This document shows, piece after piece, positions 4,081 through 41,669 of a DNA stretch of 41,833 bases. A program made the position numbers and the translations under genes. A model generated the notes under the pieces. That model saw nothing but the letters and a program-made list of their open reading frames with translations, was not told where the DNA came from and did not search any database. Every line of letters starts with the position of its first letter. Position 1 is the first letter of the stretch. The stretch spans positions 1-41,833 of the IMG/VR virus record IMGVR_UViG_3300031565_010158; one strand, given 5' to 3'. Source of the stretch: a virus.

Positions 4081-5820
4081 ATGAAAAAAGAACCTCAAAA
4101 TAGTTTACTAGATGCCATTCATGAGATCGAAAAGTCTAATCCGTCTTTTAATAAAAAGGGCGTGGAAATAGTCGATATTATGACTTTTTGTGATGACCCT
4201 AACTATCTTGATTTGCCTGCTAGTAATTTTAATCTTTATATATCTCAGAGAGTTATATTGAAGACTTTTTATATAGGGGCTCGAGGCAATGAGAATCTTA
4301 AGTTGAATAAGGAAGAGTGGGAATGGTTATATAGTCATGAGAAAGATGAAGAACGAGACGGAATTATTTTTAAGAAGAACGTTAGGGAAGTTATTGAAAA
4401 ATTATTGAAAAACGAAAAAGACCCCGACTTCAAGGGATTTAAGGAATTAAATCTGGTTCTTGGGAGGAGGGGAAGTAAAACGATCCTTGCATCGATTATT
4501 TCGGCTTATGAGATTTATAAGTTGCTTGTAATTGGTAACGGAGATCCTCATAAGTTTTATGGACTTCCTTATGATGATGAAATTGCAGTAATTAATGTGG
4601 CTCTTTCGCAGGAACAAGCAAGGCGTTTATTTGGCCAGGTGCAAGCGAGAATTCGTAATGCTCCGTTCTTTAGAAATAGAGTCGCAAATGAAACAACTAC
4701 AGAGATACGTTTCTATACCGATAAGGATATGAAAAAGAAAAAACAAGGCGCCAACTTGTCCGTTAAAGGTTCTATTTTTATTCTTTGTGGACATAGTAAT
4801 CCAGACACTCTTCGTGGTTACAGTACAATTCTAATACTTTTTGATGAGTTGGCTTTCTATGATGATACTGGCAAGGTTACGGGGCAATATTTTTATTCTA
4901 CTCTCAAGCCTTCTTTATCTAAATTTAAAAAGTACGGCGATGGTCGTCTTGTCGAGATTTCTTCTCCTAGTACTATGAGCGGTATTTTTTACGACACGCA
5001 TCATAGAGCTAAAGATGATGCTAGTATTTTATCTTACCAGCTTCCTACGTGGTGCTCTAATCCCGAAATTACATACGATAGTTTGTCAAATGATAGGGAA
5101 AGAAATCCGGATTCATTTGCGGTTGAATATGGTGCTCAATGGGCCAAGGGCGGAATTTATGGAAATTATTTTGAGGTTGGGCTTATAGAGAGATGTATTA
5201 GAACCGACATAGCACCTCATATGCGTCCAATGCCTAGATTTAGTTATTATTTGCACGTTGATCCAGCTAAGAATGGCGCAAGGTACGTTGCTGTTTTGGT
5301 TGCTAAGGAACGCTACATGAATATGCAAGGTCATCGACGCATTAGAGTTCATCTTGCTAATATGTGGGTTTGGGATCCTCAACCTGGCATTGGGCTTTTG
5401 TTTAATGAGATAGACAAAGATATGATTCAGATTTGTGCACGTTTTCATCCGATGGCGGTTTCTTATGATCAATACAATTCCATTCATAGTTTACAGCTTT
5501 TGAAGAGCCACGGCGTTAATGCAATACAAACATCATATAATAGGGCGTTTAAGAACAAGATTTATCAAAATTTGAAAGATTTGATGTCGTATTATCCTCA
5601 CCCTGAACTATGGCTATATGACGAACCAAGGCTACTTTTAGAAATGAAGTCGCTTAAATATAGGCCTACAATGAGGGGAGTTAGTTTGGTTGTAGATAAA
5701 CATGGTGAGATAAAGACCGACGATGTTATAGACTGTCTTGCGGGAGCTACGGCCATGGCGTCTGAAAGCTTACGGATGGCGTTACCAGAACCCGTTGTTG
5801 TAAGAACTGGGTTTGTTTAA
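4081..5820 (+). CDS. terL: Terminase large subunit (DNA-packaging ATPase/nuclease)
   Basis: Motor that pumps DNA into the prohead and cuts the concatemer. The N-terminal ATPase shows a Walker A-like GRRGSKT at residues 128-134; the Gly usually found before Lys is Ser here. Walker B is ILILFDELAF, with D255 and E256. The C-terminal RNase H-like nuclease has its metal-binding acids at D394 (LHVDPAKNG), around D463 (YDQYN) and D551 (DVIDCLAGA). The 579-residue length is normal for the family. There is no clear Shine-Dalgarno before the ATG, so coupling to the preceding gene is likely. No small terminase subunit is recognisable nearby, and the portal lies about 23 kb downstream, which is unusual. 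Confidence 0.93.
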   Translation: MKKEPQNSLLDAIHEIEKSNPSFNKKGVEIVDIMTFCDDPNYLDLPASNFNLYISQRVILKTFYIGARGNENLKLNKEEWEWLYSHEKDEERDGIIFKKNVREVIEKLLKNEKDPDFKGFKELNLVLGRRGSKTILASIISAYEIYKLLVIGNGDPHKFYGLPYDDEIAVINVALSQEQARRLFGQVQARIRNAPFFRNRVANETTTEIRFYTDKDMKKKKQGANLSVKGSIFILCGHSNPDTLRGYSTILILFDELAFYDDTGKVTGQYFYSTLKPSLSKFKKYGDGRLVEISSPSTMSGIFYDTHHRAKDDASILSYQLPTWCSNPEITYDSLSNDRERNPDSFAVEYGAQWAKGGIYGNYFEVGLIERCIRTDIAPHMRPMPRFSYYLHVDPAKNGARYVAVLVAKERYMNMQGHRRIRVHLANMWVWDPQPGIGLLFNEIDKDMIQICARFHPMAVSYDQYNSIHSLQLLKSHGVNAIQTSYNRAFKNKIYQNLKDLMSYYPHPELWLYDEPRLLLEMKSLKYRPTMRGVSLVVDKHGEIKTDDVIDCLAGATAMASESLRMALPEPVVVRTGFV

Positions 5821-10533: not shown

Positions 10534-10591
10534 AATCATAGGAGATCACAGGTATTTTTTAGAATAATTATGCATTCGTAGTGGAGTGCTT

Positions 10592-14862: not shown

Positions 14863-14892
14863 TCAACTACCCAATGACTAAAGATCATTGGG
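14863..14892 (-). ncRNA. IS right-end hairpin, probable 3' end of an omega-RNA scaffold
   Basis: On the - strand, CCCAATGA and TCATTGGG form a perfect 8-bp stem around TCTTTAG, then TAGTTGAT. The tnpB stop codon TAG lies in the loop. In TnpB systems the RNA overlaps the 3' end of tnpB and the guide is read from the flank beyond the right end, here TTTATACCTCTTGCCACGA, the 3' end of the neighbouring gene. Transcription is not shown by the sequence. Confidence 0.6.
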
Positions 14893-20282: not shown

Positions 20283-22304
20283 ATGTCAAATAATGTTAAA
20301 ATTAAAAACACTGAAAACACTGAAAACCTTAGCGCTGAAAATCTTAGCTACGAGACATTGGTTGAGAACAGTATTAAGTTTCAGTCTCTGAAGAAACAGA
20401 TCAAAACTGCTGCTAAACTCTCTTTAACAGGAATAACGAATTTGGTTGTTAATCACGAGGATCCGTGTCTTGTAGAGTCTTTTCTTAAAAACTGTTGGAA
20501 ACTGGAAGATCTTTATAAGGAGACTTTTGATATTGATGCTGTTGAACTTCAGAAGGGCGCTCCCGGAAGAGGATTTGCGTCTCAATATCTTGATATTTTG
20601 ATTTTTGGTGGGTTCGAAGAAGAAGATTCTGGAGATGGTCTAGGCGTTAAGGTTGCAAGGACTAATCCTCAAAACGGGAGGAGAAAACGTAAACCTGACG
20701 GATTTGTTAATCGCAAGGAAGTTTTAACTGGCAAAACAACTAAGGGGGAAAACTTTAAAGATCGTCTTTTGGTGATAAAGAACATAGATTACTGCGTTGA
20801 TTTTTGCCAGCACGAACCGGGTACAATTGATGCAAGAGCGTTATGGCTTCTGGACAATTTTCGTAATCCAAGCGTGAAGATGGGGTGCCGTATTCTTCTT
20901 GTTACGAACAAACCTTTAAAACTCCCTTTCAAGATTAGAACGGTTAAAATTGATCCAGTCGATGAATATGAGGCAAACCATATTATCGATAGCTTTACTC
21001 AGCTATACAAAACCGGAGGTTATAAAATTGATTTTACCGCCAGTCATCGCAGGCAGCTTGTCCGAAAGATATGTGGACTAACTTATACTGAAGCCGGAGA
21101 CGCCATTGCAGAGGCATTATCAACTCACACTGAGACATTTGAAGGCAGTAAGGAAATTGATTCTGTCAAGGCACTTAAAAACCTTCGTGAAAAAGTCAAT
21201 CGCAATTTCATGGAAGATGCAGTTGGATTGACTCATTTGACGGCTAGACCATGGGAAGACTATATCTGTCCTAAGTCTAGTAATTTTACGTATGATGTTA
21301 ATAAGATCGTAAGGGACTTTAATGAAATAGATAATCTGAAAAAAGAAGCTCAAGAAAAATCAAAGGTTAAAGGAAAATTTGATGTTATCGAAAAAAACAT
21401 AGATGGCATCAGGGGGCGCATGCCTCACGTTATAATTCTTTATGGTAAGGGAGGCGTTGGCAAGAGTGCATTTCCAATTCATTTCGCAGGCCTTTTAGAT
21501 TTCGATGTTTGGGACTTTAATATTGGAGCGTCTCATAGTAAATGGGTTGGCGAAGGCCCTGAAAGAATGAGAGAGGCCCTTGCGAAGATTTCTAAGGCTA
21601 GTCATCTTATTGTTCGAATAGACGAATATGATCGTGCCATTGGTTCTACTGAATCGTCTGGACAAGGAATGCACGAGGCTCATAAACAGGTTGAAGCCGA
21701 GTTTATGAACTGGCTTCAAAATAGCCAAGAGGATAATTTTTTTGTTAAGAATGATATTTTCATTATTATGACGACAAACCACAAGGATAATATTACTGGC
21801 CCTCTTTTGCGTTCAGGCCGTGCAGACCTTGTAATAGATATTGCCGATTTTGATGAGGAGAGTATGAGGGAAACATTTTTATCTGCTCCTCGCAGAATGA
21901 GCAATAGGGGGGTTGTTGTTGTCGGCTTTGATACCACTCTCGATTTGGAAAAAGCTATCCAAAAACTTGATTTAGATAAGCTTGTTTCTCTGGCGGCAGA
22001 CAAGGGTTTTACCGTTAGAGATGTCGATGTAATGCTTCAGGAAATGGCGACTCATAATTATTATTATAAGAAGAGTCAAAAGGGCATTCCGTGGACTACA
22101 GATAGTTTCGTAAAAGTTCTTGAGCGTAGCGTTGGATCTGTCAATCATGATAATGAAACTACTGGCGAGTTGGTTCTTGGGGATCGATTCTTACTGGAAG
22201 AATGTGAGAAAAAGTTCAATCCGCAGCTTAATTTTGAGTTTTTGAAGGATTATACTAATGAGTTTGATCTTGACGAATTCAAAAACGTCTCATTCTTTGA
22301 ATAG
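20283..22304 (+). CDS. Ycf46-like double AAA+ ATPase, first copy
   Basis: 673 residues. A degenerate AAA lobe comes first (about 150-310). It has a strand RLLVIKNIDYCVDF where Walker B should be (N-I-D, no catalytic Glu), then CRILLVTNKPLKLPF, and no P-loop. CGLTYTEAGDAIAEAL links it to a canonical AAA+ domain: Walker A GKGGVGKS at 388-395, Walker B VRIDEYDR (D447, E448), sensor-1 FIIMTTNH and an arginine region RSGRADLV. Degenerate-plus-active order is the architecture I recall for Ycf46 of plastids and cyanobacteria. Such motors remodel proteins or nucleic acids, substrate unknown. The ATG has AGGAG upstream. It is followed by two hairpins and a second, larger AAA+ gene. Confidence 0.8.
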   Translation: MSNNVKIKNTENTENLSAENLSYETLVENSIKFQSLKKQIKTAAKLSLTGITNLVVNHEDPCLVESFLKNCWKLEDLYKETFDIDAVELQKGAPGRGFASQYLDILIFGGFEEEDSGDGLGVKVARTNPQNGRRKRKPDGFVNRKEVLTGKTTKGENFKDRLLVIKNIDYCVDFCQHEPGTIDARALWLLDNFRNPSVKMGCRILLVTNKPLKLPFKIRTVKIDPVDEYEANHIIDSFTQLYKTGGYKIDFTASHRRQLVRKICGLTYTEAGDAIAEALSTHTETFEGSKEIDSVKALKNLREKVNRNFMEDAVGLTHLTARPWEDYICPKSSNFTYDVNKIVRDFNEIDNLKKEAQEKSKVKGKFDVIEKNIDGIRGRMPHVIILYGKGGVGKSAFPIHFAGLLDFDVWDFNIGASHSKWVGEGPERMREALAKISKASHLIVRIDEYDRAIGSTESSGQGMHEAHKQVEAEFMNWLQNSQEDNFFVKNDIFIIMTTNHKDNITGPLLRSGRADLVIDIADFDEESMRETFLSAPRRMSNRGVVVVGFDTTLDLEKAIQKLDLDKLVSLAADKGFTVRDVDVMLQEMATHNYYYKKSQKGIPWTTDSFVKVLERSVGSVNHDNETTGELVLGDRFLLEECEKKFNPQLNFEFLKDYTNEFDLDEFKNVSFFE

Positions 22305-22595: not shown

Positions 22596-25500
22596 ATGAA
22601 ATCAGTTGATAAGCTTAATTATAAGCTATCTGAGTTTTTTAAATCTAAAAAGTTTTACAAGAAAGCATCTCTAGGAAACTTTTCTGACATTAAAGATAAA
22701 GAGGAAATGGCTAAGTCTGCTGTTATGACCAAAGAGATGCTTGATCTCCCAAAGTATCAATCTATCATAAGTGATCTCAAGGGCTCCACGGGCATTGTTA
22801 ATTTTGTTACTAATGATGAATATCAACCGTTGGTTGAACTGTTGATAAAAACCGCCTTTCCCTCTACAACGAACGATATTTACAATATGGGACAATCTGA
22901 GGCCTCCGGAGAAGAATATTTTATATCTCCTAGTTTTTTTGCAAAAGATGCCGTAGCTGGTTCTTCACAACAAGCCCAAGCTGCCAGAACAAAACTTCAA
23001 GACTTACTCCTTGGAACTAAGGCTCATATGACTAGGGAATGGTTGAAAAAGGAAAAACATTTTACCGATGATCAAATCCAGCACCTTCTAGGCTCCCCAA
23101 ATCAACAAGGTGCAATCGATCAGATAATGCAGCAGCAAGCTCAGAATCCAGGCGCTCCCCTGTCGGACGCCAACCCGTTAGGTGTTTTAGTATCAATGTA
23201 TGAAATGCGAATGTCCGCAATTAAGTCTAAATACGACCCTAACATTCAACAGATTAATAAAGAGTTGTTAGAACATAGTACTGGCGAACGAGAACTCAAG
23301 GTGTCTGATATCAATGAAAAGAAAGAACAAAGAGAGATATGGATTTCATTGAAACGATCAGAGATTAATAATATAAATAACACAATAGGTAAAGCTATAA
23401 CTGTTGAAAAATGGTATCCGGGACAGTCGTATAGAAATTCTGATGGCTTTATTAGTTCTACGACACAAGAAGAAGCGGTAGCTGCTTCCGTTGAGCTTGC
23501 TATGAAAATTCAAGCTAATAAACCCGAGGCCGATATTCTGCGTGCTTCTCTAGATCTTAAGATGAAATTAGAAGATTATCAAACCAACAATTCTAATTTA
23601 CAACAGGTCAAAGAACAATTTATAAAATTCTTAGGCAACGGAACTCATGATGATTACCTTAGAATAAGAGCTAATATACGAGGACTCTATATGCAGTTGC
23701 AGTACGCATTTGTATCAATGGTTAAAAGACAGGGGAAAGTTCTTATACTTGACGACTTTGATAAATCCGTATTATGTAATCCCGCTCATCCAGAAGGTAA
23801 TGAAACTCGTTTAGATGATTTAACGAGAGGCGCTTTTCTAGATTTTGCCGGTAAGAATGCCAGTAATCTAGAAAGAGACGACAGCCAAGGCAAAAGAGAA
23901 AGAGGAAATAGAATTATAGTAATTTTGTCTAGTGATAAAATTGTAAATCTGCCTGCCTCTAGTGTAGTAGAAATGGATGTGGCTCCTGTAGATATAGCAG
24001 AGGCCGAGATTATTGTTCGTAATATTTTGAAGCAATATGCGACCGACGCCTCTAGAAATTTGAAGCGCAGACTACATCGTGAGATTGATGAAAAGCATGG
24101 AACGAAGACAACGGGTAAAAAGGGGTTTGATAAAGAGTTAATAAATGAGCAGATAGAATCAATGGAAGATTCTTTGGCCTCTATTTCTGATGATACTAAA
24201 AAGAAAATGATGGGAATGATTATAGGTATGGGTCAAAGAAGTGCCATCGACGCTGTTAGGACCGCAGTAAGATCTGGGCTTAAGGTAGATGATTCAAATG
24301 TATTGGATGTAGAAATTTCTTTTGATGAAAAAACAATTATTAGTAATCTTAGGAATACTGTTAATACTAAATTATCTACAGACGTTTATGGCCTTACGGT
24401 TCTAGAGCCAGAAGTTGAATTTGATAATTATGCGTATAAGAGAACTTCCGAATGGGCAAATAAAGTTCGAGGCATGAAAGATGTTAGGGACGAACTTGTT
24501 GATTTAAAAGAATGTATCAAAGATAATGAGCAAAGAATAAGATCAATTGACAAGGACATTGCTATTTCTAATAAGATGCCCGCCGGTGACAAAAGAAAAC
24601 TTGATAAAGAAGACGTAACCCTTTTAATGCAAGAACGAAAAGGGCTTATTGATCAGACGGCACATTATAAAACAGATAGGCATAGTATTGCTGCTAATGA
24701 CATTCCACATGTTTATGTTTTATACGGTCCTCCGGGAGTTGGTAAGTCAATTTGGGCTCACGCCTTAGCATCGCTCCTTAAAATAAATATCAAAACCGTG
24801 GATATTGGTGCTCAAAAGGACAAATGGCTTGGTAATACTGAGAAGAATGCCATCCGCCTGTTTAATTCCATGAAAAATTCCAGAGACACTATTTATTTGA
24901 TTGATGAAATTGATAGACAGGTTGAAATGGGAGGAGCGCAATCTGTAGGTACCCATGAAACAACTAAAGAAATAGTAAGTAGGTTTCTCGAGTTCTTTGA
25001 TAATACTGAAAACGAAAGATTATTTAGAAAGAATAATGTATTCTTTATTATGACTAGTAATAATGTTCAAGATATTGATACTGCGTTGCTTCAAAGAGTT
25101 TCTGAGGCGTATCATGTTGAATTGCCCGATGAGCCTGAAGATTATCAAAAATTCTTTAAGAGTTATATGGATGTTGAGAAAAATAGGTTTCCTGATGATC
25201 CATGGTTTTGCGCCCTTGAAGATAAGAATACGGAAGAATGTTGGACAACTACTTTCAATATGGTTAATGCTCTCGATTGGGAAGAAATATCGAAAGTGTT
25301 TGCTGAAAAACAAATTGACTTTAGATCTCTTAAGAAAATGCTTCAGCAGGCTTTTAATGCTCATCGCTCGTGGCGCATTCGCATGAAACTTATTGGTAAA
25401 GGAAGAGAGGTCGAACCGCTTGGCCTTCCTCTAACAACAGAAAACCTTCTAGCCGTTGGCCATATTATCGAGACAGGGGCTGAATCAAATGATGCCTTTA

Positions 25501-26195
25501 AACTTGGAGTGGGGGCACTTGCCAAAGATAGAGAAGAACAAGTTAGGAAGATTATGGAACCTTATGTTAGGGGCGAAAAACAACTTGAAACTCAGTCCGT
25601 TACAGATCCGCATACTGGACAGGTGCAAGAAACATATGTCCTGCCTAAAGAAGTGTTAGATGTTATGGAGGGCAAAGTTGCGGCTCAGATGCCGGGAACT
25701 GAGGCAGAAGAATGGGAATATAGTAGCGAAGAAACGCCAGAAGGCCAAAAGAGAGTAGATCTTAGGCGCAAAGGACCTAAGCCAGAGGATCAAATGCAAG
25801 AACTAACAGAAGATAGTTTCGAGGAACAGCCTCTTGAGGAGACAGATCAAGAAAAAATCAAATCCGAGAAGGAAAAGCCCTCTCCGTTAGAGAAAAAAGA
25901 AGAAGAAGTTAAGTCTTCTACTGACTATTTGTTTAATTTCTTAAAGAAAGAAGGCTTTGTTACGGAAGATGGCGATTTTGTTTCGCCCAAGAAAGAAAAT
26001 AAGACTTTAAAGATTAAGAAAACAGAAAATAAAAAAGTTAAAGAGGCACAGGTATTACAGGCGTCTCCGGAGCAACAAATGGCATCCGATGGAGTTTATA
26101 TGTTTGGAAGGGAATCTAAGCCGTTTATAATGATAGCTCCGGGTTCTGCTACTGCACCTCCTCAAATTATTCAATCGGAGTCGAAAAGAGTTTAA
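22596..26195 (+). CDS. Ycf46-like double AAA+ ATPase, second, enlarged copy
   Basis: 1199 residues. The N-terminal ~350 are helical and unknown (starting with KKFYKKAS). A degenerate AAA lobe has VLILDDFD (D386, D387), NRIIVILSSDKIVNLP and no P-loop. After a coiled-coil spacer (about 640-695) comes a canonical AAA+ domain: Walker A GPPGVGKS at 711-718, Walker B YLIDEIDRQ (D770, E771), sensor-1 FFIMTSNN and LLQRVSEAYHVELP. The last ~200 residues are Glu/Lys-rich and disordered, ending with KEAQVLQASPEQQ. Same lobe order as the gene at 20283, but much longer; the pair are probably diverged paralogs that could form a mixed ring. The start is supported by GAGGG. Confidence 0.8.
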   Translation: MKSVDKLNYKLSEFFKSKKFYKKASLGNFSDIKDKEEMAKSAVMTKEMLDLPKYQSIISDLKGSTGIVNFVTNDEYQPLVELLIKTAFPSTTNDIYNMGQSEASGEEYFISPSFFAKDAVAGSSQQAQAARTKLQDLLLGTKAHMTREWLKKEKHFTDDQIQHLLGSPNQQGAIDQIMQQQAQNPGAPLSDANPLGVLVSMYEMRMSAIKSKYDPNIQQINKELLEHSTGERELKVSDINEKKEQREIWISLKRSEINNINNTIGKAITVEKWYPGQSYRNSDGFISSTTQEEAVAASVELAMKIQANKPEADILRASLDLKMKLEDYQTNNSNLQQVKEQFIKFLGNGTHDDYLRIRANIRGLYMQLQYAFVSMVKRQGKVLILDDFDKSVLCNPAHPEGNETRLDDLTRGAFLDFAGKNASNLERDDSQGKRERGNRIIVILSSDKIVNLPASSVVEMDVAPVDIAEAEIIVRNILKQYATDASRNLKRRLHREIDEKHGTKTTGKKGFDKELINEQIESMEDSLASISDDTKKKMMGMIIGMGQRSAIDAVRTAVRSGLKVDDSNVLDVEISFDEKTIISNLRNTVNTKLSTDVYGLTVLEPEVEFDNYAYKRTSEWANKVRGMKDVRDELVDLKECIKDNEQRIRSIDKDIAISNKMPAGDKRKLDKEDVTLLMQERKGLIDQTAHYKTDRHSIAANDIPHVYVLYGPPGVGKSIWAHALASLLKINIKTVDIGAQKDKWLGNTEKNAIRLFNSMKNSRDTIYLIDEIDRQVEMGGAQSVGTHETTKEIVSRFLEFFDNTENERLFRKNNVFFIMTSNNVQDIDTALLQRVSEAYHVELPDEPEDYQKFFKSYMDVEKNRFPDDPWFCALEDKNTEECWTTTFNMVNALDWEEISKVFAEKQIDFRSLKKMLQQAFNAHRSWRIRMKLIGKGREVEPLGLPLTTENLLAVGHIIETGAESNDAFKLGVGALAKDREEQVRKIMEPYVRGEKQLETQSVTDPHTGQVQETYVLPKEVLDVMEGKVAAQMPGTEAEEWEYSSEETPEGQKRVDLRRKGPKPEDQMQELTEDSFEEQPLEETDQEKIKSEKEKPSPLEKKEEEVKSSTDYLFNFLKKEGFVTEDGDFVSPKKENKTLKIKKTENKKVKEAQVLQASPEQQMASDGVYMFGRESKPFIMIAPGSATAPPQIIQSESKRV

Positions 26196-28962: not shown

Positions 28963-31251
28963 ATGGCAGGCGGTCCGGTTATTCAAACCAGTAATCTTAG
29001 TGATACATTTAGGGCTCTTCGCAACAGAGATCCATCTAAATTAATCAGTCAGGACGTTCCTTATGCTCCTGATTACAAATCTGTACCTTCCCAAAATTAT
29101 GGCCCAACCACTTCTGTCTCTAATGCGTTCGGCGGAGGGGGCATGTATCGGTTTGGTTCTGCCTCTTCAAACTCAGGAATTATTTACGGTCAGCCACAGT
29201 TTTTCTCACCAGTTCATACTCCTATCAACTGGCAAATACCATCCAAAAGACTAGAGCAATACCAATGGGCAAGATTTTTTTATGAGAATGAGCCTAAGGT
29301 TGCTTCTTCGATGGACTTCTATAGTTATTTTCCGATGAATGACTTTGACAATGAATGCAAAGATCGTAATGTTAAGAAATATTTTGATAAGCTAAAGAAA
29401 AGGATTGAACTTCCTAAGTGGCTTCGATTAATGAGTCATGAGATTCATTTACTTGGAGACTGTTTCCCGTTCATAGAAATTTCTTGTGATCATTGTGGAG
29501 GTTTAGGCAGAACTGGAGATGAGATATGTGAACATGCCGGCGGAACTATTAGGCGCATTGTTATTTTAAATCCAGATTATGTCGAAGTGTATAGTTCTCC
29601 TCTTATGCCGGATCCTCTTATAGCTCTTAAGCCGGACGAAGAACTAATTAATATGGTTCAAAAGAGAACTCCTGGTTATGAGAAATTAAGTCCCGATGTT
29701 ATAAAATTAATCTCGGCTGGCAAACCAATTCGTCTGGATAACCGTAATGTTTCTCATCTTATGTATGGAGAAAGCGGATATACCTCCTATGGCGTTGGAA
29801 TGGTCAGAAGATTATTTCCTATCCTTTCATATAAAACTAAATTGATGGTGGCACAATGGATAGTGGCAGAAAGATTAATTGTTCCTATTAAGGTTGTTAA
29901 GGTTGGTACCGATGAACGTCCTGCTGGCCCTGCTGATATTGCTGCTGTTCAGTCTCAATTAGCTCAAACAGCAAATGACCCAAATTTAACTATTGTTACT
30001 CATCACGCATTTGAATTAGATTGGTATGGTGCCGCTGGTAAAGTTCTAACTCTATCTAATGAATTTGACTTTATTAATCAGGAAATTCTTGATGGTATGA
30101 TGATTAATAATGCATTGCTAAATGGAGAAGGACCAAATTTCAGTAATGCTGCTGTTGGTATTGAGGCTATGATAGAAAGGCTTGAAACTTTTCGTAGGGA
30201 AGTGGCTACATGGATTGAAGAACGTATTTATTTGCCAGAAGCTATACGTCAAGACTTTAAGGAAATAGACGAAGAAACTGGCGAAGTAGAATATATTTAT
30301 CCTAAGGTCAAATGGAACGCAATGCACCTGCGAGATCAGCAGCAGTATCGTACATTTGTATTGCAGTTGTATGAAAAAGGGCTTTTGAGTGCCCAGACTG
30401 TCCTTGAAGCATTTGATTTCGATCCAGATCAGGAAATAGAGAGAAAGAGATATGATGCTGTTCAGTTGATGGCGCTTGGACAGGGCATTGGAGGCGCCGG
30501 AGGTGCCGGAGGCATTGGTGGCGCAGAAATGGGTGGCGGCTTTGGCGGCGGAATGCCACCGATGGGTGGCGCTCCTGGAGGCGCTCCTGGAGGAGACATG
30601 GGCGGAATGGGAGGCATGGGCGGAGGTGATATGGGAGGCGGAGCTCCAATAAGTGCTCCAGGTGCCGGAGGAATGTCTGGCGCCGCTCCTGCATTAGCTT
30701 CGGCAAAGACTTCATTAGATATAGCTAACCCTTCTGAATATGGTGGTAAAGTATTAAAAAAGAAGTCTAGAGAGAGAGCTGATTCTGAAAAAAAGAAAAT
30801 TTATCAGCGACAGTCTGGGCAAAATGCAAAACAGGGAGATCAGGGTAATGGAATGACGGGGGCGAGAGATCTCAAGGGCAGGATAGTTTTTACAAAGCCC
30901 GAAAGAGAATTGCTTACTGCTCTTTCTAAATATAAAAGCGATGGCCTTATTAAATACCCCATAATTCCGCAATACCCAGTTTCTTTTGGAAATGTAGAAT
31001 ATCCAATAGATTTTGCATTGCCTCATTTAAAAATAGGAATTGAGGCCGATGGTGAGGTTTTTCATTCTGCTCCAAAGCAAATAGTTCATGATAACGAGAG
31101 AGATATGAAGCTTTCTCAGTCTGGATGGACAATATTAAGATTTAAGGACGCAGAAATAGAAAAGCAAGTAGAGCGAGTAATGAGTACCATCATTAAAACT
31201 ATTATGCAGAAAGAAATGGCTCTAGAGAAACAAAAGCAAGAAATAAAATAA
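28963..31251 (+). CDS. Portal protein fused to a DUF559/Vsr-like nuclease domain
   Basis: 762 residues from ATG 28963, chosen over in-frame 28951 because GGAG lies 6 nt before it. Residues about 80-480 are a phage portal: QWARFFYENEPKVASSMDFY, the DWYGAAGKVLTLSNEFDF region and IMINNALLNGEGPNFSNA-type wing and stem sequence. The portal is the DNA channel at the head vertex. C175-x2-C178 with GGLGRTGDEIC looks like a zinc knuckle. A Gly/Met/Pro-rich linker (about 507-574) leads to a C-terminal domain with YPIDFALP (D683), IGIEADGEVFH (E694, D696, H701), a conserved NERD element and GWTILRF. That is the PD-(D/E)xK pattern of DUF559/Vsr-like endonucleases. I know of no standard portal with this domain. 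Confidence 0.87.
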   Translation: MAGGPVIQTSNLSDTFRALRNRDPSKLISQDVPYAPDYKSVPSQNYGPTTSVSNAFGGGGMYRFGSASSNSGIIYGQPQFFSPVHTPINWQIPSKRLEQYQWARFFYENEPKVASSMDFYSYFPMNDFDNECKDRNVKKYFDKLKKRIELPKWLRLMSHEIHLLGDCFPFIEISCDHCGGLGRTGDEICEHAGGTIRRIVILNPDYVEVYSSPLMPDPLIALKPDEELINMVQKRTPGYEKLSPDVIKLISAGKPIRLDNRNVSHLMYGESGYTSYGVGMVRRLFPILSYKTKLMVAQWIVAERLIVPIKVVKVGTDERPAGPADIAAVQSQLAQTANDPNLTIVTHHAFELDWYGAAGKVLTLSNEFDFINQEILDGMMINNALLNGEGPNFSNAAVGIEAMIERLETFRREVATWIEERIYLPEAIRQDFKEIDEETGEVEYIYPKVKWNAMHLRDQQQYRTFVLQLYEKGLLSAQTVLEAFDFDPDQEIERKRYDAVQLMALGQGIGGAGGAGGIGGAEMGGGFGGGMPPMGGAPGGAPGGDMGGMGGMGGGDMGGGAPISAPGAGGMSGAAPALASAKTSLDIANPSEYGGKVLKKKSRERADSEKKKIYQRQSGQNAKQGDQGNGMTGARDLKGRIVFTKPERELLTALSKYKSDGLIKYPIIPQYPVSFGNVEYPIDFALPHLKIGIEADGEVFHSAPKQIVHDNERDMKLSQSGWTILRFKDAEIEKQVERVMSTIIKTIMQKEMALEKQKQEIK

Positions 31252-31748: not shown

Positions 31749-33450
31749 ATTTAACCTTAGTCAATGGGAATCCAACAAGGTAGCGGAATACGTTGGAAGA
31801 TACGTAAAGGCTATGGGATATACTCATCAAAAATACAGAGACCAGTATAGGTGGTGGGACTATGATACATTAAGGGAAAGTCCTCCGGAAGATTGGAGTA
31901 ATTGGGTTTCTGCTGATCCGAGCTTAGTCGATGCTTTAAGAGATGCTGCAGACATTAGATGGAAGAAATTAAGAGAAGTTAGACAGATATATGGAATATC
32001 ATCCCAAGAGGCCGCTAAGATTGTTAAAACATATGTTGGGTACCATCCCTCTTATGGTGGCTATATTTGTCAACTTGGGCCTTATATTAGTGCAGGTGGA
32101 GGACATGGTAGTGGATTTATTATAGAAGAAGCTATAGATAAATTCGGATATTACATCAAGAGGAAAAGAAGATCTACTCCCGAACAGGTTATGAAATCTG
32201 TTTTGAAGAACATCAGTGGCTATCAAAATAGATTTGGAATAGATTTTGATGCCTCAGATTTCGGATACGTTATAAAAGAAAATCCATCTGAATTCGATTC
32301 TGTTAGGTCCAGGCAGCCTAATAAAACAGTTAGAGAATATGTTTCTACTCTCGACCCACAAAGTCCAGAGGCACAATCCTTTTTTGACAGAGCTCCAATG
32401 GTAGGGGAAGGCTCTCATTTTACTCTTAATAATAGAGGATATGATAAATTATTGAGGGGTTTAATGGGAACATGGTATCAAGAAGCAATTAGAGAAAGAA
32501 TGGCACAGCAAAATTTAACAGAGGAACAGGTAGTAAATTCTATTTTGACAAATCCTGAAACCTTAAGATCTATTTATACGTCTACTTATCAAAAATGGCA
32601 AGAAGCAAGAAATAGTGGTGAGGCCGCAGCTGCTGGTATGACCGCCCCCCCTAAGTTTATGGATGCGTCTCTTAAACCAAAATCAGGACAAGTTATAATG
32701 AGTACCATTCCTTCAAATAAGAGTATGGTAAGTGAGTTAGAGTTTCGTCAGGAAATTTTGCAGTTGTTATCAGAAGGGGTTGACTCTCCAGAAGCAATAG
32801 CGGGAAGATTAAACGCCGATCCTGCAAGAGAAATAAAGAATAGGGCTCTTCAAGGTCGAGGAAGAGAATCGGTTGTTATTTCCCCCGATGAAGTTCAAAT
32901 GCGAATTAATAGAATAAACGCTCTTCGTGAAAGTGATGATGGACAGAAAGATTATCAACAGCTCCTTGGCGAAAACTCCCAAATGATTGATGAGTTAGCC
33001 GTAGGAAGAGGATTTGATGATCTTAGAACAGCCTTTGAGATGGCTGCAATGTATTTCTCTAGTATGCCAGTAGAACCCAAGAGCGGTGCAAAATTAGGTT
33101 CTGCCAACTCCATTATTTTTAATCCTCCGGAGAATTTTGAGAATTTTACAAGTCAGGATCTGGCTAGGTTTAGGAGAGAGCGGACTGGTAAAACCGAAGA
33201 AGAATTGGCTACCGAAGAAGATGTTGCCAGAGATATTGGAGAGATTCCTTTAACAAAAGAAGAAGAACCTGCCCCAGAAAGAGTTCCTGAAGCAGAATTA
33301 CCTGATGAAAAAAATGATTTAGAAGAACTTCTTGGTCGAACATTAAAAAATCTTATCAAAATAGCAGCAGAGCTCGATGAAGAAGGCAAAGATGATGCTG
33401 CTGAAGAGATTCATAAAGTAATTAGGAAATATCAAGAGAGGATTTTATAA
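31741..33450 (+). CDS. Unknown structural-region protein
   Basis: 569 residues. The N-terminal ~270 form a folded region rich in aromatic residues (YRDQYRWWDYDTL, GTWYQEAIRERM). The centre (about 330-430) is helical. The tail from about 480 is Glu/Pro-rich, with NLIKIAAELDEEGKDDAAEE near the end. No catalytic motif is seen. The start overlaps the previous gene by 8 nt, and its TAA overlaps the protease ATG by one base, so it is translated together with the protease/scaffold gene. A minor head protein is the likeliest role by position only. Confidence 0.65.
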   Translation: MNKFNLSQWESNKVAEYVGRYVKAMGYTHQKYRDQYRWWDYDTLRESPPEDWSNWVSADPSLVDALRDAADIRWKKLREVRQIYGISSQEAAKIVKTYVGYHPSYGGYICQLGPYISAGGGHGSGFIIEEAIDKFGYYIKRKRRSTPEQVMKSVLKNISGYQNRFGIDFDASDFGYVIKENPSEFDSVRSRQPNKTVREYVSTLDPQSPEAQSFFDRAPMVGEGSHFTLNNRGYDKLLRGLMGTWYQEAIRERMAQQNLTEEQVVNSILTNPETLRSIYTSTYQKWQEARNSGEAAAAGMTAPPKFMDASLKPKSGQVIMSTIPSNKSMVSELEFRQEILQLLSEGVDSPEAIAGRLNADPAREIKNRALQGRGRESVVISPDEVQMRINRINALRESDDGQKDYQQLLGENSQMIDELAVGRGFDDLRTAFEMAAMYFSSMPVEPKSGAKLGSANSIIFNPPENFENFTSQDLARFRRERTGKTEEELATEEDVARDIGEIPLTKEEEPAPERVPEAELPDEKNDLEELLGRTLKNLIKIAAELDEEGKDDAAEEIHKVIRKYQERIL

Positions 33451-36400
33451 TGATAATTAAATTTGCTTTATGCGAAATTATTCCGTTAGATATGCCCGTG
33501 AGTAGTGACGGCAAAGTTGGCATTATGAAAACAGCGTCAGGTAGAGTTTTTGTTGAGCCCGATAGCGACAAGGCTCGAGTTATAGAGAGCGAAATTGAAA
33601 AGCACCCAACGTCATTGTTTTTTAGGGCAAAAGCTATTAAGGCCGACGAACCTAATTCTAATGGTGATTATTTTTCCGAAGAAGAGCTTTTGAAGAGTCA
33701 TAAGAGTTTCGAGGGCGTTCCGTTCTTTACAAATCATGATAATCAAAACGTAGAGAACGCAAGAGGTAAAATTATATTTGCAGAATGGGATCCAAAAGAG
33801 AAGGCGGTTTATACAATTGCTTTTGTAGATCGTGAAGCCTTCCCACATATTTGTAGAAGTATTGAAGAGGATTATGTTACGGGCGTTTCGATGGGATGCT
33901 CTGTTGAATATAGTATTTGTAATATTTGCGGAAATAAGGCGGAAAAAACAGAAGATTATTGTTCTCATATTAAAGAACGAAAAGGTAGAACGTTCTCTGG
34001 GAAAGCCCGTAATGTACGAACCGGAGAAACTAAAGAATTTAAGAATGAACTTGTTTTCGAATATAACTATGGAATTAAATTTATTGAGTTGAGTGCTGTT
34101 GTAGATCCTGCTTGCCCATCATGTCGAATTGAAGGACTCCTTGCTAATGATGATTATATGAGAAGAGTTGCAACCGTTGAAAATTCTCTCAGGATGATCA
34201 AAATGTCTGCAATTGAAAAGGAAGCAAGTCAAGAAGAAATTGATCAATTAAATCAGGTCTTGACTACGTTAGAAAGTATTGCGGTTAGTTTAATCCAAAA
34301 TAGGCAACAAGTAGAAGTCGAATTCGCAAGTGATTTAGTTGCGATCCTTTCTGATCTGCAAAAATTTGTTGATGAATTAATAGGTGCTGGTTACAGTAAT
34401 GTTCAGGGTGTTCCTGGGGTAGCAGATTCTCCGGACGGATTAATGCTCCCTGATGGCGGAGGTGTTCCTGCTGCCGGAGGTGTTCCTGCTGGGTTAGAAG
34501 CTTCCCCTGTCGCCGCAGAAACACCAATTGCAGATATTCCTGTCGGAACCGTATCAGGATCACCATCTAAACCATTAGTACAGCCCCCTCAGTTACCTAT
34601 AACAGCTCCTGCTAAACCTATAGCTTTTGATTCTAAAAAGTTGAAAAAAGTTGCCGGGCTTCTTGGAGGTTTACAAAAAATTAGCGATAAAATGAGAAAT
34701 AAAGGAGAAGACAATATGGGCGAAAGACGAACATTAGTCAAGCGAAAAGAGCAGGCAAAAGTTGCTACTGAAGTTTTATCAAATTTGTGGAAGGAAAAAC
34801 AGAAATTTTTTGCGTATATTAATAGAGTACCATCTATACAGGATAATGAGTATAAATTGTCCGTTAAAAAGAGAGATGATTCTTTCGTTATTGTAGCAGA
34901 AGATAAAGGAAACTCTGAAAACCAAAAAAATTGGACTTTTGAAGATTTGACGGATAAAGAAAAGAAAATGGTAGAGGAATCGCCGAAAGAGGCAGCATTG
35001 TACTTTTTAGATACGTTTGCAAATAGTTTTAAAACTAACATAAAAGAAGGAGATACAGAAATGACAGATAATATTAGAGAAGCTGGAGCGCAGTCCACAA
35101 ACAAGTCTCCCGAAGTAATTACCGAGAAGCAACTAGATGGGGGTGATCTTTATCATGCTCGTACTGATGCTGAACAGAATGTAATTACCGAGAAGCAGCT
35201 TGACGGACAGCGTTCAGGAGAGAAGGACGTAATTACCGAGAAGCAGTTAGAGGAAAAAAGTAATAAACTGAATCCTCGTAAGGACGAAGAGAAAGAAGTT
35301 ATTACCGAAGCTCAGCTGCAAGGAGACGCTTCAGGCGTTTCTTCTCGTAAGGACAACGCTCCTAATGTTGTTACTCAGAAACAGCTTGATGATTACAGGG
35401 GCAATAAGGAGCCTGACGTAATAACTGAAAAACAACTTGACTCCGTTGATACTCCTTGGGAGAGAGCGGCATCAAGAGACTCTTCTTTGTTTAAGAGTGC
35501 CGGTGAGCACATGCAGGCCGTAATTGACGTTCTTGCTGACAGTGCTATATCTACTGGTTGTACTCCTCAGGAAGTATCTGGCGTAGCTGAATCACTTATT
35601 GGTTCTACTAAAGATCGTTTCGAATTAGGAAATGCGGTTCTTGACAAAGCACAGGAAGAAGATGTTGATTATAGCAAGAGACTTGCTTATTGGAGTGCAA
35701 AGAATATTAAGGTAGCTGGCGTTGGTAGTAAGGAAATTGCAGAGACTATCGTTAGAGGTCTTAGAAGAATTGCTTCTGATATAACTATTAATCCTGAAAT
35801 AATTATTGATGCTCTTGATGTTGCTACTGAAGGAGACGAAGGTATAGAAGCTATTAGTAAGAAAATTGATGATAAATTAGAAGAAGCTAAAACAGAAACT
35901 GTTAAGGCTAGTAAGAAAGCTGAACTTCGCACCGCTCTTAAAGGGAATGCTGGAAAAGAAAAAAGAGACGAAGAAAGAAAAGAAATTGAAGCTTCGTTAA
36001 ATAAAGAAGACAATAAACTTACAAGAGAAGCCGAAAGAGCATTGTGGGAAAAGGGCGTTGAAGAGGAGAAGAGGCCTGATACTATGATCGAAACTAATTT
36101 TGAAGAAATTGGTTGTAGTAAGGACGCCGAAGGGTTTAGGCCTGCAATTAAGAGTTTTGCAAGAGGAGCACTTGCTTCGCAGAACATTAAATTAGCAGCT
36201 ATTACTAATGTAACAATTAATGGTGATACAATTTCAATTGCGGTTCAGACCGATGGTGGCGAAGAAGCCATAGACATTCCTATTGGCGAAGAAATCGCTC
36301 CTATTGAAGAAGAAATAGTTCCCGAAGGAGACTTGGCAGGCGAAGGTCTTGAAATGGGAATGGGAGAATTAGGAAAAGTTTCTCCTCAGACAGGTCTTCC

Positions 36401-38852
36401 AATAGCAGCTTCTAAGAAACAGGGTCTGAAGAAACAAGCACAGTCTCCTATGGGCGGTGGCGTTCCAGGAACACCCGGCGAAGTAGCTGGTGGTCCTGGC
36501 GGTCTTGCTGGCGGCGGCGTCCCCGGCGGTCCTCCTATGGATACTCCAATAGAATCACTAACGGTTGATGAAAAAGTTGTTTCTGATGAAATTCCTACGG
36601 CTGGTGAACAGCAGATGCCTTATGCTATCTGCCCCGAATGTGGTAGCTCAGACGTTGATATCGAAAAAGAAGCAAGTGGCGGAATTAAGGGTGGTTGTAA
36701 CAATTGCGGAGCAGAATACGAAGCTCTTGTTAAAAAGGCTATTGAATTCAAAATTGTTAAGCCTACTAGAAGTATTGGCGAAGAAGGAACAGTGGGTGAC
36801 TTAGAATCTCCTGAGGTTCCTGCACTTCCTGTTGCAGCTCAGACTAAGTTAGATAAAGATGTTATTGTTAGAGTTGCTTCAAATCAGCAAAAGCATGGTC
36901 ATGTTTGCCCTGCTTGTGGTATGAATCAATGCAAAGTAGCTTCCGAAGAAGGTGGTCACACTGAGTACACTTGTCCGGCTTGCGGTACAGATGTCGAGAA
37001 AGATGTTGTTATTAATGTAAATGATCCTGACGAAAGTTATTTAAGGGTTAAATGGGACGTTGTTCCTAACCTTGAAAACTGCGAAGGATGCGATGAAGAC
37101 GCAACTAAGTTTGCTTCAATGATTAAAATTGAAAAGATGATGAAGCAGGCGACAAGTGGCGAAACGGAATTCCCAATGGCTAATTGCATTGAGAGAATAG
37201 CTTTAGTCTATGGCGGAAATACAACGGCAACATTTGGTCCTTGCAAAGGAAAACTTCTTACTGACTGTGTATGCGGGCAACTTAAGCGTTTGGGGCTTAC
37301 TAAAGTTCGCCACATGGAAAGACTAGCAAGTGTTTATACTCAGAAAGATCCGATGGACGAATGCATTAATGATCAAATGAAGAAGGATTTTGATCGTAAA
37401 GAAGCAGAAAACATTTGTAATTGCTTAAAGAAGAAATTCGCTTCGGAAGAAGACGACAATATCTTTGTTCAGGCGTTTGCTGATGATATCAAGTCTGGTA
37501 AGGAGAAAATTCTTACCGCCCAGGACTTAGGCGTTATTAACGACCTATTTGTCGAAGAAGCTCCTGAGGTAGAAGACTTCGAAGATACTGATATTGGCGA
37601 TGCTATCGAAGAAACAGTGACAATAGAGGTTAGTAAGGCCACCGCCGAAGAACTCGCTAATGCAGCTGCAGATGCAGTTGTTGAAGTAGAGGTCGATGTT
37701 GATCTTGAAGTTGAAGGAAATCCTGAAATAGTGGAAGAAATTCCAGAAACAACTGCAACTGAAGAAATTGAAGTTGCATCTGACTCTACAGATAAGATAG
37801 AAATTAATACAGAAGAGGAGAAAGATATGGTTGAAGCTATGAAATCTCATAAATTAAGAAGGGTGGGTGACGAAATTGTTAAGGTTGCCGGTGAGCCTAA
37901 GGTAGTAGAAAATATCGAAGGTAATGTTAGAGCCGGTGTTCCTAGAGCAAAAGCTACAATGGGAGAAGAGGGAGCTGATAATATTGATGTTCCTATGGCA
38001 AAGCCTAGTATCCCTAGAGCTAATGCTGAAATGGGTAACGAAAGCTCAAGTAATATTAACCCTGCCGCAGGACTTCCTAATGTTGCGGTAGACAGTTCTT
38101 ATATGGGCGTCGAAAAGTCCGTCCAGAAAGACATGCCTGCTATCAACAACGAAATCAAAGGTACTGTTATTGCAGAAAAAGATGGTAAAAACGTCAAAGA
38201 AGCAAAACAGCTTAAGGAAGTAGAAACGGTTGAGCAGGATGTTAGAGCCGGTGTTCCTAGAGCAAAAGCTACAATGGGAGAAGAGGGAGCTGATAATATT
38301 GATGTTCCTATGGCAAAGCCTAGTATCCCTAGAGCTAATGCTGAAATGGGTAACGAAAGCGCCGATAATATCAATCCTAAGGCCGTCGGACCTGACGTTC
38401 CAGTAGACAGTGCTTACATGGGCGCCGAGAAAGCAGTCCAGAAAGACATGCCTCCTATCAATGACGAAATCCTTAAGAATGTTCAGCAGAACATTAATAA
38501 GGAAAAACAACAGGAAAGAATATCTTCGGCTCGTAGAATGAAGGCTACTGAGGTTACTTCGAAGCTCTTGGCTACAAACAGAATACCTGAAGAAGCATAC
38601 GAAGATGTAATTGATGCCCTAAGCAACTTTGAAATTGATAAGATTGCTGTTAAGGCAGACACTATGTATCCTAGAAAGGCAGTAAGGGCTAATCAGGATC
38701 CTAATGTTCATTCTATCCCTGCAATCGTTATGGAATCAAAGAAAATCAAATCTTCTGATCCAGTAGGCGAATTAGCTGATAGAATTGCTTCTCACCTTAC
38801 TATTGGTAATAAGTCATTTGATGAGAATTTGACTGTCTATGGCGAGAAATAA
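33450..38852 (+). CDS. Prohead protease fused to a very long scaffold-like region
   Basis: 1800 residues. The N-terminal ~235 form a prohead (U35/gp21-like) serine protease: SLFFRAKAIKADEPN, FFTNHD with H96, and GVSMGCSVEYS with candidate nucleophile S147. An inserted zinc knuckle has C157, C160, C171 and H173. The remainder resembles scaffold: Pro/Gly/Ala linkers, six VITEKQL-type repeats starting at 556, 578, 594, 617, 640 and 657, and acidic helices. Two four-Cys zinc ribbons lie at 1061-1086 and 1153-1178. A 105-residue-period tandem repeat starts near 1492. Three in-frame ATGs (34716, 35061, 37827) have good Shine-Dalgarno sequences, so nested scaffold products, as with lambda C/Nu3, are plausible. 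The protease matures the head by cutting scaffold. Confidence 0.85.
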   Translation: MIIKFALCEIIPLDMPVSSDGKVGIMKTASGRVFVEPDSDKARVIESEIEKHPTSLFFRAKAIKADEPNSNGDYFSEEELLKSHKSFEGVPFFTNHDNQNVENARGKIIFAEWDPKEKAVYTIAFVDREAFPHICRSIEEDYVTGVSMGCSVEYSICNICGNKAEKTEDYCSHIKERKGRTFSGKARNVRTGETKEFKNELVFEYNYGIKFIELSAVVDPACPSCRIEGLLANDDYMRRVATVENSLRMIKMSAIEKEASQEEIDQLNQVLTTLESIAVSLIQNRQQVEVEFASDLVAILSDLQKFVDELIGAGYSNVQGVPGVADSPDGLMLPDGGGVPAAGGVPAGLEASPVAAETPIADIPVGTVSGSPSKPLVQPPQLPITAPAKPIAFDSKKLKKVAGLLGGLQKISDKMRNKGEDNMGERRTLVKRKEQAKVATEVLSNLWKEKQKFFAYINRVPSIQDNEYKLSVKKRDDSFVIVAEDKGNSENQKNWTFEDLTDKEKKMVEESPKEAALYFLDTFANSFKTNIKEGDTEMTDNIREAGAQSTNKSPEVITEKQLDGGDLYHARTDAEQNVITEKQLDGQRSGEKDVITEKQLEEKSNKLNPRKDEEKEVITEAQLQGDASGVSSRKDNAPNVVTQKQLDDYRGNKEPDVITEKQLDSVDTPWERAASRDSSLFKSAGEHMQAVIDVLADSAISTGCTPQEVSGVAESLIGSTKDRFELGNAVLDKAQEEDVDYSKRLAYWSAKNIKVAGVGSKEIAETIVRGLRRIASDITINPEIIIDALDVATEGDEGIEAISKKIDDKLEEAKTETVKASKKAELRTALKGNAGKEKRDEERKEIEASLNKEDNKLTREAERALWEKGVEEEKRPDTMIETNFEEIGCSKDAEGFRPAIKSFARGALASQNIKLAAITNVTINGDTISIAVQTDGGEEAIDIPIGEEIAPIEEEIVPEGDLAGEGLEMGMGELGKVSPQTGLPIAASKKQGLKKQAQSPMGGGVPGTPGEVAGGPGGLAGGGVPGGPPMDTPIESLTVDEKVVSDEIPTAGEQQMPYAICPECGSSDVDIEKEASGGIKGGCNNCGAEYEALVKKAIEFKIVKPTRSIGEEGTVGDLESPEVPALPVAAQTKLDKDVIVRVASNQQKHGHVCPACGMNQCKVASEEGGHTEYTCPACGTDVEKDVVINVNDPDESYLRVKWDVVPNLENCEGCDEDATKFASMIKIEKMMKQATSGETEFPMANCIERIALVYGGNTTATFGPCKGKLLTDCVCGQLKRLGLTKVRHMERLASVYTQKDPMDECINDQMKKDFDRKEAENICNCLKKKFASEEDDNIFVQAFADDIKSGKEKILTAQDLGVINDLFVEEAPEVEDFEDTDIGDAIEETVTIEVSKATAEELANAAADAVVEVEVDVDLEVEGNPEIVEEIPETTATEEIEVASDSTDKIEINTEEEKDMVEAMKSHKLRRVGDEIVKVAGEPKVVENIEGNVRAGVPRAKATMGEEGADNIDVPMAKPSIPRANAEMGNESSSNINPAAGLPNVAVDSSYMGVEKSVQKDMPAINNEIKGTVIAEKDGKNVKEAKQLKEVETVEQDVRAGVPRAKATMGEEGADNIDVPMAKPSIPRANAEMGNESADNINPKAVGPDVPVDSAYMGAEKAVQKDMPPINDEILKNVQQNINKEKQQERISSARRMKATEVTSKLLATNRIPEEAYEDVIDALSNFEIDKIAVKADTMYPRKAVRANQDPNVHSIPAIVMESKKIKSSDPVGELADRIASHLTIGNKSFDENLTVYGEK
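34704..34718 (+). promoter_or_regulatory. Internal in-frame start: GGAG and ATG 34716
   Basis: AAAGGAG sits 8 nt before an in-frame ATG at residue 423 of the protease/scaffold gene (MGERRTLVKRKEQAK). It falls where a Pro-rich linker ends and a new folded segment begins, which fits a nested or formerly separate gene. Confidence 0.5.
35048..35063 (+). promoter_or_regulatory. Internal in-frame start: AGGAG and ATG 35061
   Basis: AAGGAGAT is 8 nt before ATG at residue 538 (MTDNIREAGAQSTNK), immediately upstream of the six TEKQL repeats. A product started here would be a protease-free scaffold of about 1263 residues. Confidence 0.55.
35115..35438 (+). repeat. Six coding repeats of VITEKQL
   Basis: Copies start at residues 556, 578, 594, 617, 640 and 657, spaced 16-23 residues apart; the fourth is VITEAQL and the fifth VVTQKQL. 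TAATTACCGAGAAGCA is identical in the first three at DNA level. The same peptide motif is repeated near the N-terminus of the protein at 5896. Confidence 0.85.
37815..37829 (+). promoter_or_regulatory. Internal in-frame start: GAGGAG and ATG 37827
   Basis: GAGGAG is 6 nt before an in-frame ATG at residue 1460 (MVEAMKSHKLRRVGDEIVK), at the border between an acidic stretch and the tandem-repeat region. A separate ~341-residue product could be made. Confidence 0.5.
37924..38045 (+). repeat. 122-nt perfect direct repeat, copy 1
   Basis: Identical base for base to 38239-38360, period 315 nt (105 codons). It encodes VRAGVPRAKATMGEEGADNI and on to ANAEMGNES. The flanking parts of the two 105-residue units are only similar, so the identical core points to recent duplication or gene conversion. 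Confidence 0.95.
38239..38360 (+). repeat. 122-nt perfect direct repeat, copy 2
   Basis: Second copy of the 37924-38045 repeat, in the same frame of the protease/scaffold gene. The units diverge afterwards (SSSNINPAAG against SADNINPKAV). Confidence 0.95.
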
Positions 38853-40670: not shown

Positions 40671-41669
40671 ATGACTGTAGAATCTAAAATACATAAGAAT
40701 GAAGATTTACAGAAACTAAAAGAATATTATATTGACAAAAAGATGTCCACAGTAGACATAGAACAAAATAGTGAATCTATTTTTGGTTTTTATATTAGTA
40801 GAGGTACTATTTACAGAACGCTTAAAAAACATAATATAAATGTGCGCAATAAGTCTGTAAGTGTTTCAAGGGCGATGTCAAACTTAGATTTAGATAAGAT
40901 ATATGTAAATGAAAATATTATAGAATGGATAGATGGGTTTAATTTGGGAGACGGCTATATCAATTGGGACAAAAGGGGAGGATTGACAAAAGGCGCAAGG
41001 TTTGTAATAGGATCAATAACAAAAAGTTGGTCTCAATATGCGATGTCTGGACTCAATATATATTCTCCATCAGAATTAAAACAATATGGTAGGGTTAGAA
41101 AAAGAACCCCTAATTTAAGCTGGGTTTCGCAAACTTGTACCCATCCTGACATACAATATCAAGCTGATAGATGGTATCCAAATGGTAAAAAGAAAGTTCC
41201 TAAAGACGTTCGTATTACTCCAACTAGCATTATGTTGTGGTATTTAGGGGACGGGAGCATAGTTGTTGATAATAAAACCAATGCAGTTTGGGCTCAATTT
41301 GCAACTTGTTCATTTGACAGAGAAGATATACATAATATTTTAAGGTTTAAATTAGAAAACTTAGGAATCAGAACCAGATATAATAAAGGCAAAAATGATA
41401 TTATTATTCCTTCTAATGCCATTAGTAAATTCTTTAATCTAATAGGCCGCAAATCACCAGTTCCTGAGTATCAGTACAAATTTGAATATCCTAAATGGTT
41501 AGATTTTATTCGTCTTTCTGAAATAGTTAAGAACGACAAGGAAAAATATAGGGCTCAATATTATTATAAAACAGGTCAAATAGAATGTTCTAAAAGTCCT
41601 GGTGGTAAAATGCTTCTTTTTACAGAAAAACAGGCTGAAAAATTAAAGAATAAATTATGTAATCGTTAG
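40671..41669 (+). CDS. LAGLIDADG homing endonuclease, free-standing
   Basis: 332 residues with both motif copies: WIDGFNLGDGYI at about residue 87 and LWYLGDGSI at about 193. The acidic residues that bind catalytic metal are present in each. An N-terminal ~65-residue segment (DLQKLKEYYIDKKMSTVDIE, ending ISRGTIYRTLKKHNI) looks like a helix-turn-helix DNA-binding module. Such enzymes cut a cognate site lacking the element, and repair copies them in. It lies between two 16-nt direct repeats with its own promoter and terminator. The target is probably in or after the capsid gene of related phages. Confidence 0.9.
   Translation: MTVESKIHKNEDLQKLKEYYIDKKMSTVDIEQNSESIFGFYISRGTIYRTLKKHNINVRNKSVSVSRAMSNLDLDKIYVNENIIEWIDGFNLGDGYINWDKRGGLTKGARFVIGSITKSWSQYAMSGLNIYSPSELKQYGRVRKRTPNLSWVSQTCTHPDIQYQADRWYPNGKKKVPKDVRITPTSIMLWYLGDGSIVVDNKTNAVWAQFATCSFDREDIHNILRFKLENLGIRTRYNKGKNDIIIPSNAISKFFNLIGRKSPVPEYQYKFEYPKWLDFIRLSEIVKNDKEKYRAQYYYKTGQIECSKSPGGKMLLFTEKQAEKLKNKLCNR

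What the first reader, a model, noticed from the sequence alone, without database searches (positions are those of the whole stretch)
28963..31251. Portal protein carrying a C-terminal DUF559/Vsr-like nuclease domain
After a Gly-rich linker the portal ends with a domain holding D683, E694-x-D696, H701 and a GWTILRF strand, the layout of PD-(D/E)xK nucleases of the Vsr/DUF559 group. A nuclease tethered to the DNA channel could nick DNA, help free stalled packaging, or attack host or rival DNA during injection.
Basis: partly seen in the sequence, partly recalled or inferred. Interest (0 to 1): 0.75.

Follow-up and report, generated by a model that had tools for sequence, protein, structure and literature searches.

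The report
Phage portal carrying a built-in nuclease
A whole clade of uncultured large phages builds the ring through which DNA enters the head with a DNA-cutting domain permanently tethered to it; this has a single origin, looks enzymatically intact, and was found in no sequenced cultured phage.

Summary
ORF 28963-31251 is a portal protein (phrog_16240, E 4e-47; portal fold). After an ~90-residue disordered Gly-rich linker it ends in a DUF559 nuclease domain (PF04480, E 2e-10, 41 bits against a cut-off of 20.6). The domain is predicted with pLDDT above 90 and resembles I-Bth0305I, the DUF559 structure 3hrl and Vsr. It is not an oddity of this contig. Scans with the portal body alone found the tail in 75/75 and 57/58 portals not cut by a contig end; the exception has one in-frame TGA before it. 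Tailed portals form one clade (support 99, one gain), beside tailless relatives such as phage G. In 51 non-redundant tails E647, Q670, D683, E694 and D710 never vary and D696 and H701 almost never. The nuclease is under the same purifying selection as the portal body (omega 0.045 and 0.046; linker 0.13). No portal in the phage-record searches (50,697 records) matched over the tail. The terminase keeps its own nuclease residues, so this is an additional enzyme. I favour a head-internal nuclease acting on phage DNA during packaging (about 0.5), over one released and ejected with the genome (about 0.25). Activity, specificity and location are inferred, not shown.

The parts
28963..31251 (+). Portal protein with C-terminal nuclease (762 aa)
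29200..30489 (+). Portal core, residues about 80-509
   Evidence: phrog_16240 E 4e-47 over 75-502; AlphaFold portal fold; Foldseek against many solved portals
30490..30756 (+). Gly/Met/Pro-rich linker, residues about 510-598, predicted disordered
   Evidence: pLDDT < 50 for 506-598; omega 0.13 against about 0.045 on either side
30757..30858 (+). Junction with GGKVLKKK basic motif and short helix, residues about 599-632
   Evidence: a [KR][KR]GKG or GGKxLKKK motif recurs before the nuclease in the window subclade; helix 600-620 in model
30859..31248 (+). DUF559 / Vsr-fold nuclease domain, residues 633-762; E647, Q670, D683, E694, D696, H701, D710, R713, D714
   Evidence: PF04480 E 2e-10; conservation; fold
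4081..5820 (+). Terminase large subunit of the same contig with intact nuclease aspartates (HVDPA, SYDQ, KTDDVID)
   Evidence: phrog_2 E 2.8e-29; alignment
33450..38852 (+). Head maturation protease fused to a 1,800-aa protein (could in principle release the tail)
   Evidence: phrog_18299 E 6e-16, residues 66-222

Best explanation
A portal protein gained, once, a C-terminal DUF559-type PD-(D/E)xK nuclease on a flexible Gly-rich tether, and a whole clade of large phages has kept it as a core head component. The portal ring (12 copies by analogy) would hold its nuclease domains inside the prohead at the mouth of the DNA channel, because portal C-termini face the capsid interior. There they most likely act on phage DNA as it enters or at completion of packaging: nicking or trimming irregular DNA (branches, ends, mismatches, torsional strain). 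That is a built-in counterpart of T4's separate packaging nucleases (portal-bound endonuclease VII; head-completion nuclease gp4). Shown here: the fusion, the predicted fold, the invariant catalytic set, single origin, near-universal retention, purifying selection, and intact terminase nuclease residues. Inferred: location, catalysis, timing, substrate.
For: PF04480 above cut-off. Core fold a-b-b-b-a-b with pLDDT > 90; Foldseek best hits I-Bth0305I 3r3p, DUF559 3hrl (TM 0.86 by target length), Vsr. Catalytic set nearly invariant in 51 non-redundant tails. Portal-body-only scans: 75/75 and 57/58 tailed. One gain on the portal tree, support 99.4; a single clade of nuclease domains not rejected, p-AU 0.71. 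omega nuclease 0.045, body 0.046, linker 0.13. DUF559 in 17/17 tailed records (one copy in the portal; one record has a second, free-standing copy) and in none of 12 tailless. Domain not swapped for others: favours a core role. T4 portal C-terminal GFP lies in the prohead interior (PMC10893049); portal-bound gp49 releases stalled branched DNA (PMC9958956); T4 gp4 is a nuclease needed for packaging (PMC7824862).
Against: No activity or location data. If the domain sits inside the head it cannot easily reach branches stalled outside the portal. An active nuclease next to packaged DNA needs a restraint that was not found. Resolvase genes do not show a clean complementary pattern: RuvC 0/17 tailed against 4/12 tailless, RusA 3/17 against 0/12, endonuclease VII 1/17 against 1/12. 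Tailless sister phages do without any DUF559.
Confidence: 0.5

Rival explanations
1. Ejected effector: the tail is an internal head cargo. The head maturation protease frees it, and up to 12 nuclease domains enter the cell with the genome to cut host or competitor DNA.
For: The portal C-terminus should lie inside the head (PMC10893049). Portal fusions to enzymatic domains (PBECR, 2H, InPase) have been read as injected effectors (PMC5512222); MuF toxins are a similar idea (PMC5576092). The phage has a head maturation protease.
Against: No shared cleavage motif seen in the linker. The domain is constant and never swapped, unlike polymorphic toxins. No strict partner or immunity gene: the downstream small gene is absent from one tailed subclade.
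Confidence: 0.25
2. Non-catalytic DNA handling: the domain only binds DNA, for example to grip the packaged genome or signal a full head.
For: Tethered domains at the channel mouth could do this without cutting. A basic motif precedes the domain.
Against: Predicted metal-site residues D683 and E694 are 51/51, D696 49/51, H701 50/51; binding alone would not need them.
Confidence: 0.12
3. A homing endonuclease or other selfish nuclease parked in the portal gene and still mobile.
For: Nearest solved fold is the homing endonuclease I-Bth0305I. Portal genes of this clade are full of inteins, so such invaders are common here. Plausible as the origin.
Against: Single gain, vertical inheritance, near-universal retention, purifying selection equal to the portal body; no DNA-recognition domain found in the tail.
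Confidence: 0.05
4. Replacement of the terminase nuclease: the portal domain makes the headful cut.
For: It would sit at the packaging vertex (inference from the portal fold).
Against: Terminase nuclease aspartates are intact in tailed and tailless lineages.
Confidence: 0.03

Closest known systems
DUF559 (PF04480) proteins, e.g. NGO0050 structure 3hrl
   Same: Profile match above cut-off, same core fold, shared D...ExDG motif and the RF strand
   Different: The known ones seen here are stand-alone or in helicases and homing endonucleases; none found on a portal
I-Bth0305I, EDxHD homing endonucleases (3r3p)
   Same: Best Foldseek hit; Vsr-like catalytic core with the E-x-x-G and D motifs aligned
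   Different: No NUMOD-type DNA-recognition region found; vertically fixed, not mobile
Vsr endonuclease (1vsr, 1cw0)
   Same: Overall fold; D and H positions comparable (residue correspondence partly from memory)
   Different: No Vsr Pfam hit; no cysteines for the zinc site; no mismatch specificity known
T4 endonuclease VII (gp49) bound to portal gp20
   Same: A nuclease physically associated with the portal during packaging
   Different: Separate protein, unrelated fold (from memory), resolves branches outside the head
T4 gp4 head-completion nuclease
   Same: A restriction-fold nuclease required in head morphogenesis
   Different: Separate TnsA-like protein, not fused to the portal
Portal or MuF fusions with PBECR, 2H, InPase or toxin domains (polyvalent proteins, MuF toxins)
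   Same: Enzymatic domain on a portal-vertex protein
   Different: Other enzymes, variable, MuF toxins mostly in temperate phages; here one constant DNA-nuclease type

Membership tests
Caudoviricetes portal protein | Portal sequence profile and fold | tested here: met
   phrog_16240 E 4e-47; Foldseek against many portals, E down to 3e-10
DUF559 (PF04480) | Score above gathering cut-off | tested here: met
   41.0 bits against 20.6
DUF559 (PF04480) | PD-(D/E)xK core fold and catalytic residues | tested here: met
   Predicted fold; D683, E694, D696, H701 conserved
DUF559 (PF04480) | Nuclease activity | not testable with these tools
   Needs a biochemical assay
REase_MTES_1575 (PF18741) | Score above gathering cut-off | tested here: inconclusive
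   37.4 bits against 38.2: just below
Vsr endonuclease | Vsr sequence profile | tested here: not met
   No Vsr family among Pfam hits at E <= 1
Vsr endonuclease | Cys-based zinc site (feature from memory) | tested here: not met
   No cysteine in the tail, P0002
EDxHD homing endonuclease | Catalytic core fold | tested here: met
   3r3p Foldseek E 1.6e-4
EDxHD homing endonuclease | Mobile, sporadic distribution | tested here: not met
   75/75 and 57/58 retained; one gain
Polymorphic toxin on a virion protein | Variable C-terminal domain among close relatives | tested here: not met
   Same domain throughout the clade
Polymorphic toxin on a virion protein | Adjacent immunity gene | tested here: inconclusive
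   Downstream small gene beside 116 of 226 tailed-portal ORF entries (duplicates counted), missing from the second subclade
Headful nuclease replacing that of the terminase | Terminase nuclease degenerate | tested here: not met
   Motifs I-III intact

The most novel reading that the evidence does not exclude
In a whole clade of large phages, packaging depends on a nuclease held by the portal inside the head, for example a nickase that relieves torsion or repairs irregularities in a very long genome as it is packed: a packaging step not described in model phages.
Probability: 0.3. Interest if true: 0.82.

Novelty: new variant of a known kind. Interest (0 to 1): 0.62.

Why it matters
Portals are seen as passive channels and valves, with DNA cutting left to the terminase and separate nucleases. 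Here an enzyme-like domain has been part of the portal since the base of a diverse clade of large phages and is as strongly conserved as the channel itself. That implies a required DNA-processing step at the portal, or an obligatory virion-carried nuclease, and either is directly testable by a single catalytic mutation. The clade was not found among searched annotated phage records, which explains why it could have been overlooked.

Tried and rejected
Terminase-replacement idea: rejected, terminase motifs intact. Resolvase complementarity (RuvC, endonuclease VII, RusA): no clean pattern, inconclusive. Dedicated partner or immunity gene downstream: not universal. Protease cleavage motif in the linker: inspected by eye, none shared across the clade. 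FastTree of nuclease domains against cellular DUF559: too short to resolve; a constrained test did not reject one clade. Search of bacterial genomes with the tail: 28 DUF559-like loci, none beside a portal homologue. The A4 search of genome contigs failed for lack of conserved stretches. Literature: no paper in the held library found describing a portal-DUF559 fusion, but most subscription papers are not held. I-Bth0305I's own paper was not available.

Full report
Observation. ORF 28963-31251 encodes a 762-aa protein; the start at 28963 follows GGAG. Residues 75-502 match a portal family (phrog_16240, E 4e-47) and the full AlphaFold model matches many solved portals. Residues 506-598 are predicted disordered. 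Residues 679-747 match PF04480 DUF559 (E 2e-10).

Fold. The tail, modelled from an alignment of 47 sequences, gives pLDDT above 90 over most of the domain with the order helix, three strands, helix, strand, the core layout of PD-(D/E)xK nucleases. Foldseek's best matches are the homing endonuclease I-Bth0305I (3r3p), the DUF559 protein 3hrl and Vsr. Profile search agrees (3hrl E 4e-10, 3r3p E 8e-7). There is no Vsr Pfam match and no cysteine, so the domain belongs with DUF559, in the wider Vsr fold group.

Distribution. A search with the tail alone brought 80 viral contigs; of the 79 new loci 78 carry it on a portal ORF and the other, L101, has an in-frame TGA just before it. Because that search selects for tails, I repeated it with portal bodies only. 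Among portals not cut by a contig end, 75/75 in the window's clade and 57/58 in a second clade have the tail; the one exception is the L101 contig again. Contigs from similar phages are not independent; among portals collapsed at 95% identity there are 51 tailed ones plus L101 (counted before the last two scans). A scan centred on phage G found mostly tailless relatives, many ending in the Gly-rich region. On the portal-body tree tailed portals are one side of a branch with support 99.4, and one change explains the distribution. In 29 records (phage G and other relatives, many of them large contigs), DUF559 occurs in 17/17 tailed and 0/12 tailless ones; one tailed record has a second, free-standing copy. 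In annotated phages, portal matches cover only the body, and tail matches fall in helicases, homing endonucleases and hypothetical proteins.

Constraint. In 51 non-redundant tails E647, Q670, D683, E694, D710, G721, W722 and R726 are invariant; D696 is D in 49 and E in 2; H701 is 50/51. Over 32 usable pairs median omega is 0.045 for the nuclease, 0.046 for the body and 0.130 for the linker; many of these pairs share sequences, so they are not independent. In at least four relatives an intein sits directly after the E of the E-x-D motif; inteins favour conserved catalytic sites (general knowledge), so this fits.

Mechanism. Portal C-termini face the head interior: in T4, GFP fused to the portal C-terminus lies inside the prohead (PMC10893049), and crown and wing contact packaged DNA (PMC9958956). 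I infer the same here. The terminase keeps its nuclease aspartates, so the tail is an extra activity. Its constancy and lack of swapping favour a core packaging role; T4 shows two separate packaging nucleases, portal-bound endonuclease VII (PMC9958956) and gp4 (PMC7824862). The ejected-effector model remains open: portal fusions with other enzymes have been read that way (PMC5512222). Resolvase content, a downstream partner gene and linker motifs did not decide between them.

Novelty. Portal fusions with enzymatic domains are known; a DUF559-type DNA nuclease fixed on the portal of a large clade was not found in the searched literature or phage records. New variant of a known kind. Substrate, activity, location and timing are untested.

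Noticed in passing
L021:3469-10119, L009:4480-9981, L013:3636-9785: Portal genes of this clade carry up to four large insertions each, at recurring sites near residues 103, 121, 358, 394 and 695; Pfam names intein splicing and LAGLIDADG domains in L021.
   Followed up: partly
L010, L013, L018, L021 (portal tail): An intein sits inside the catalytic E-x-D motif of the nuclease, directly after the E.
   Followed up: partly
L322:6681-6683 (same contig as L101): A single in-frame TGA separates portal and nuclease tail; sequencing error, recoding or real split not resolved.
   Followed up: partly
L041-L109 subclade with L067: About 100 extra conserved residues (YKFASxLMNEI ... SAAHEGF ... GRGxLGxLPEEYDG) lie between the Gly-rich linker and the nuclease, absent from the window's subclade.
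   Followed up: no
L010, L013, L019-L021: A short extra C-terminal segment follows the nuclease (e.g. YLGRFYKAG, EIGYIVKAG).
   Followed up: no
window 33450-38852: Head maturation protease domain fused to a 1,800-aa protein with repeated VITEKQLD segments.
   Followed up: no
window 40671-41669: LAGLIDADG homing endonuclease gene directly after the major head protein gene.
   Followed up: no
window 14878-16068 (-): Transposase gene (phrog_506) on the minus strand, among plus-strand genes.
   Followed up: no
window 20283-22304 and 22596-26195: Two large AAA+ ATPase genes in a row shortly before the portal.
   Followed up: no
window 10586-14086: 1,166-aa protein with a poly(A) polymerase / tRNA nucleotidyltransferase head domain near its C-terminus.
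   Followed up: no
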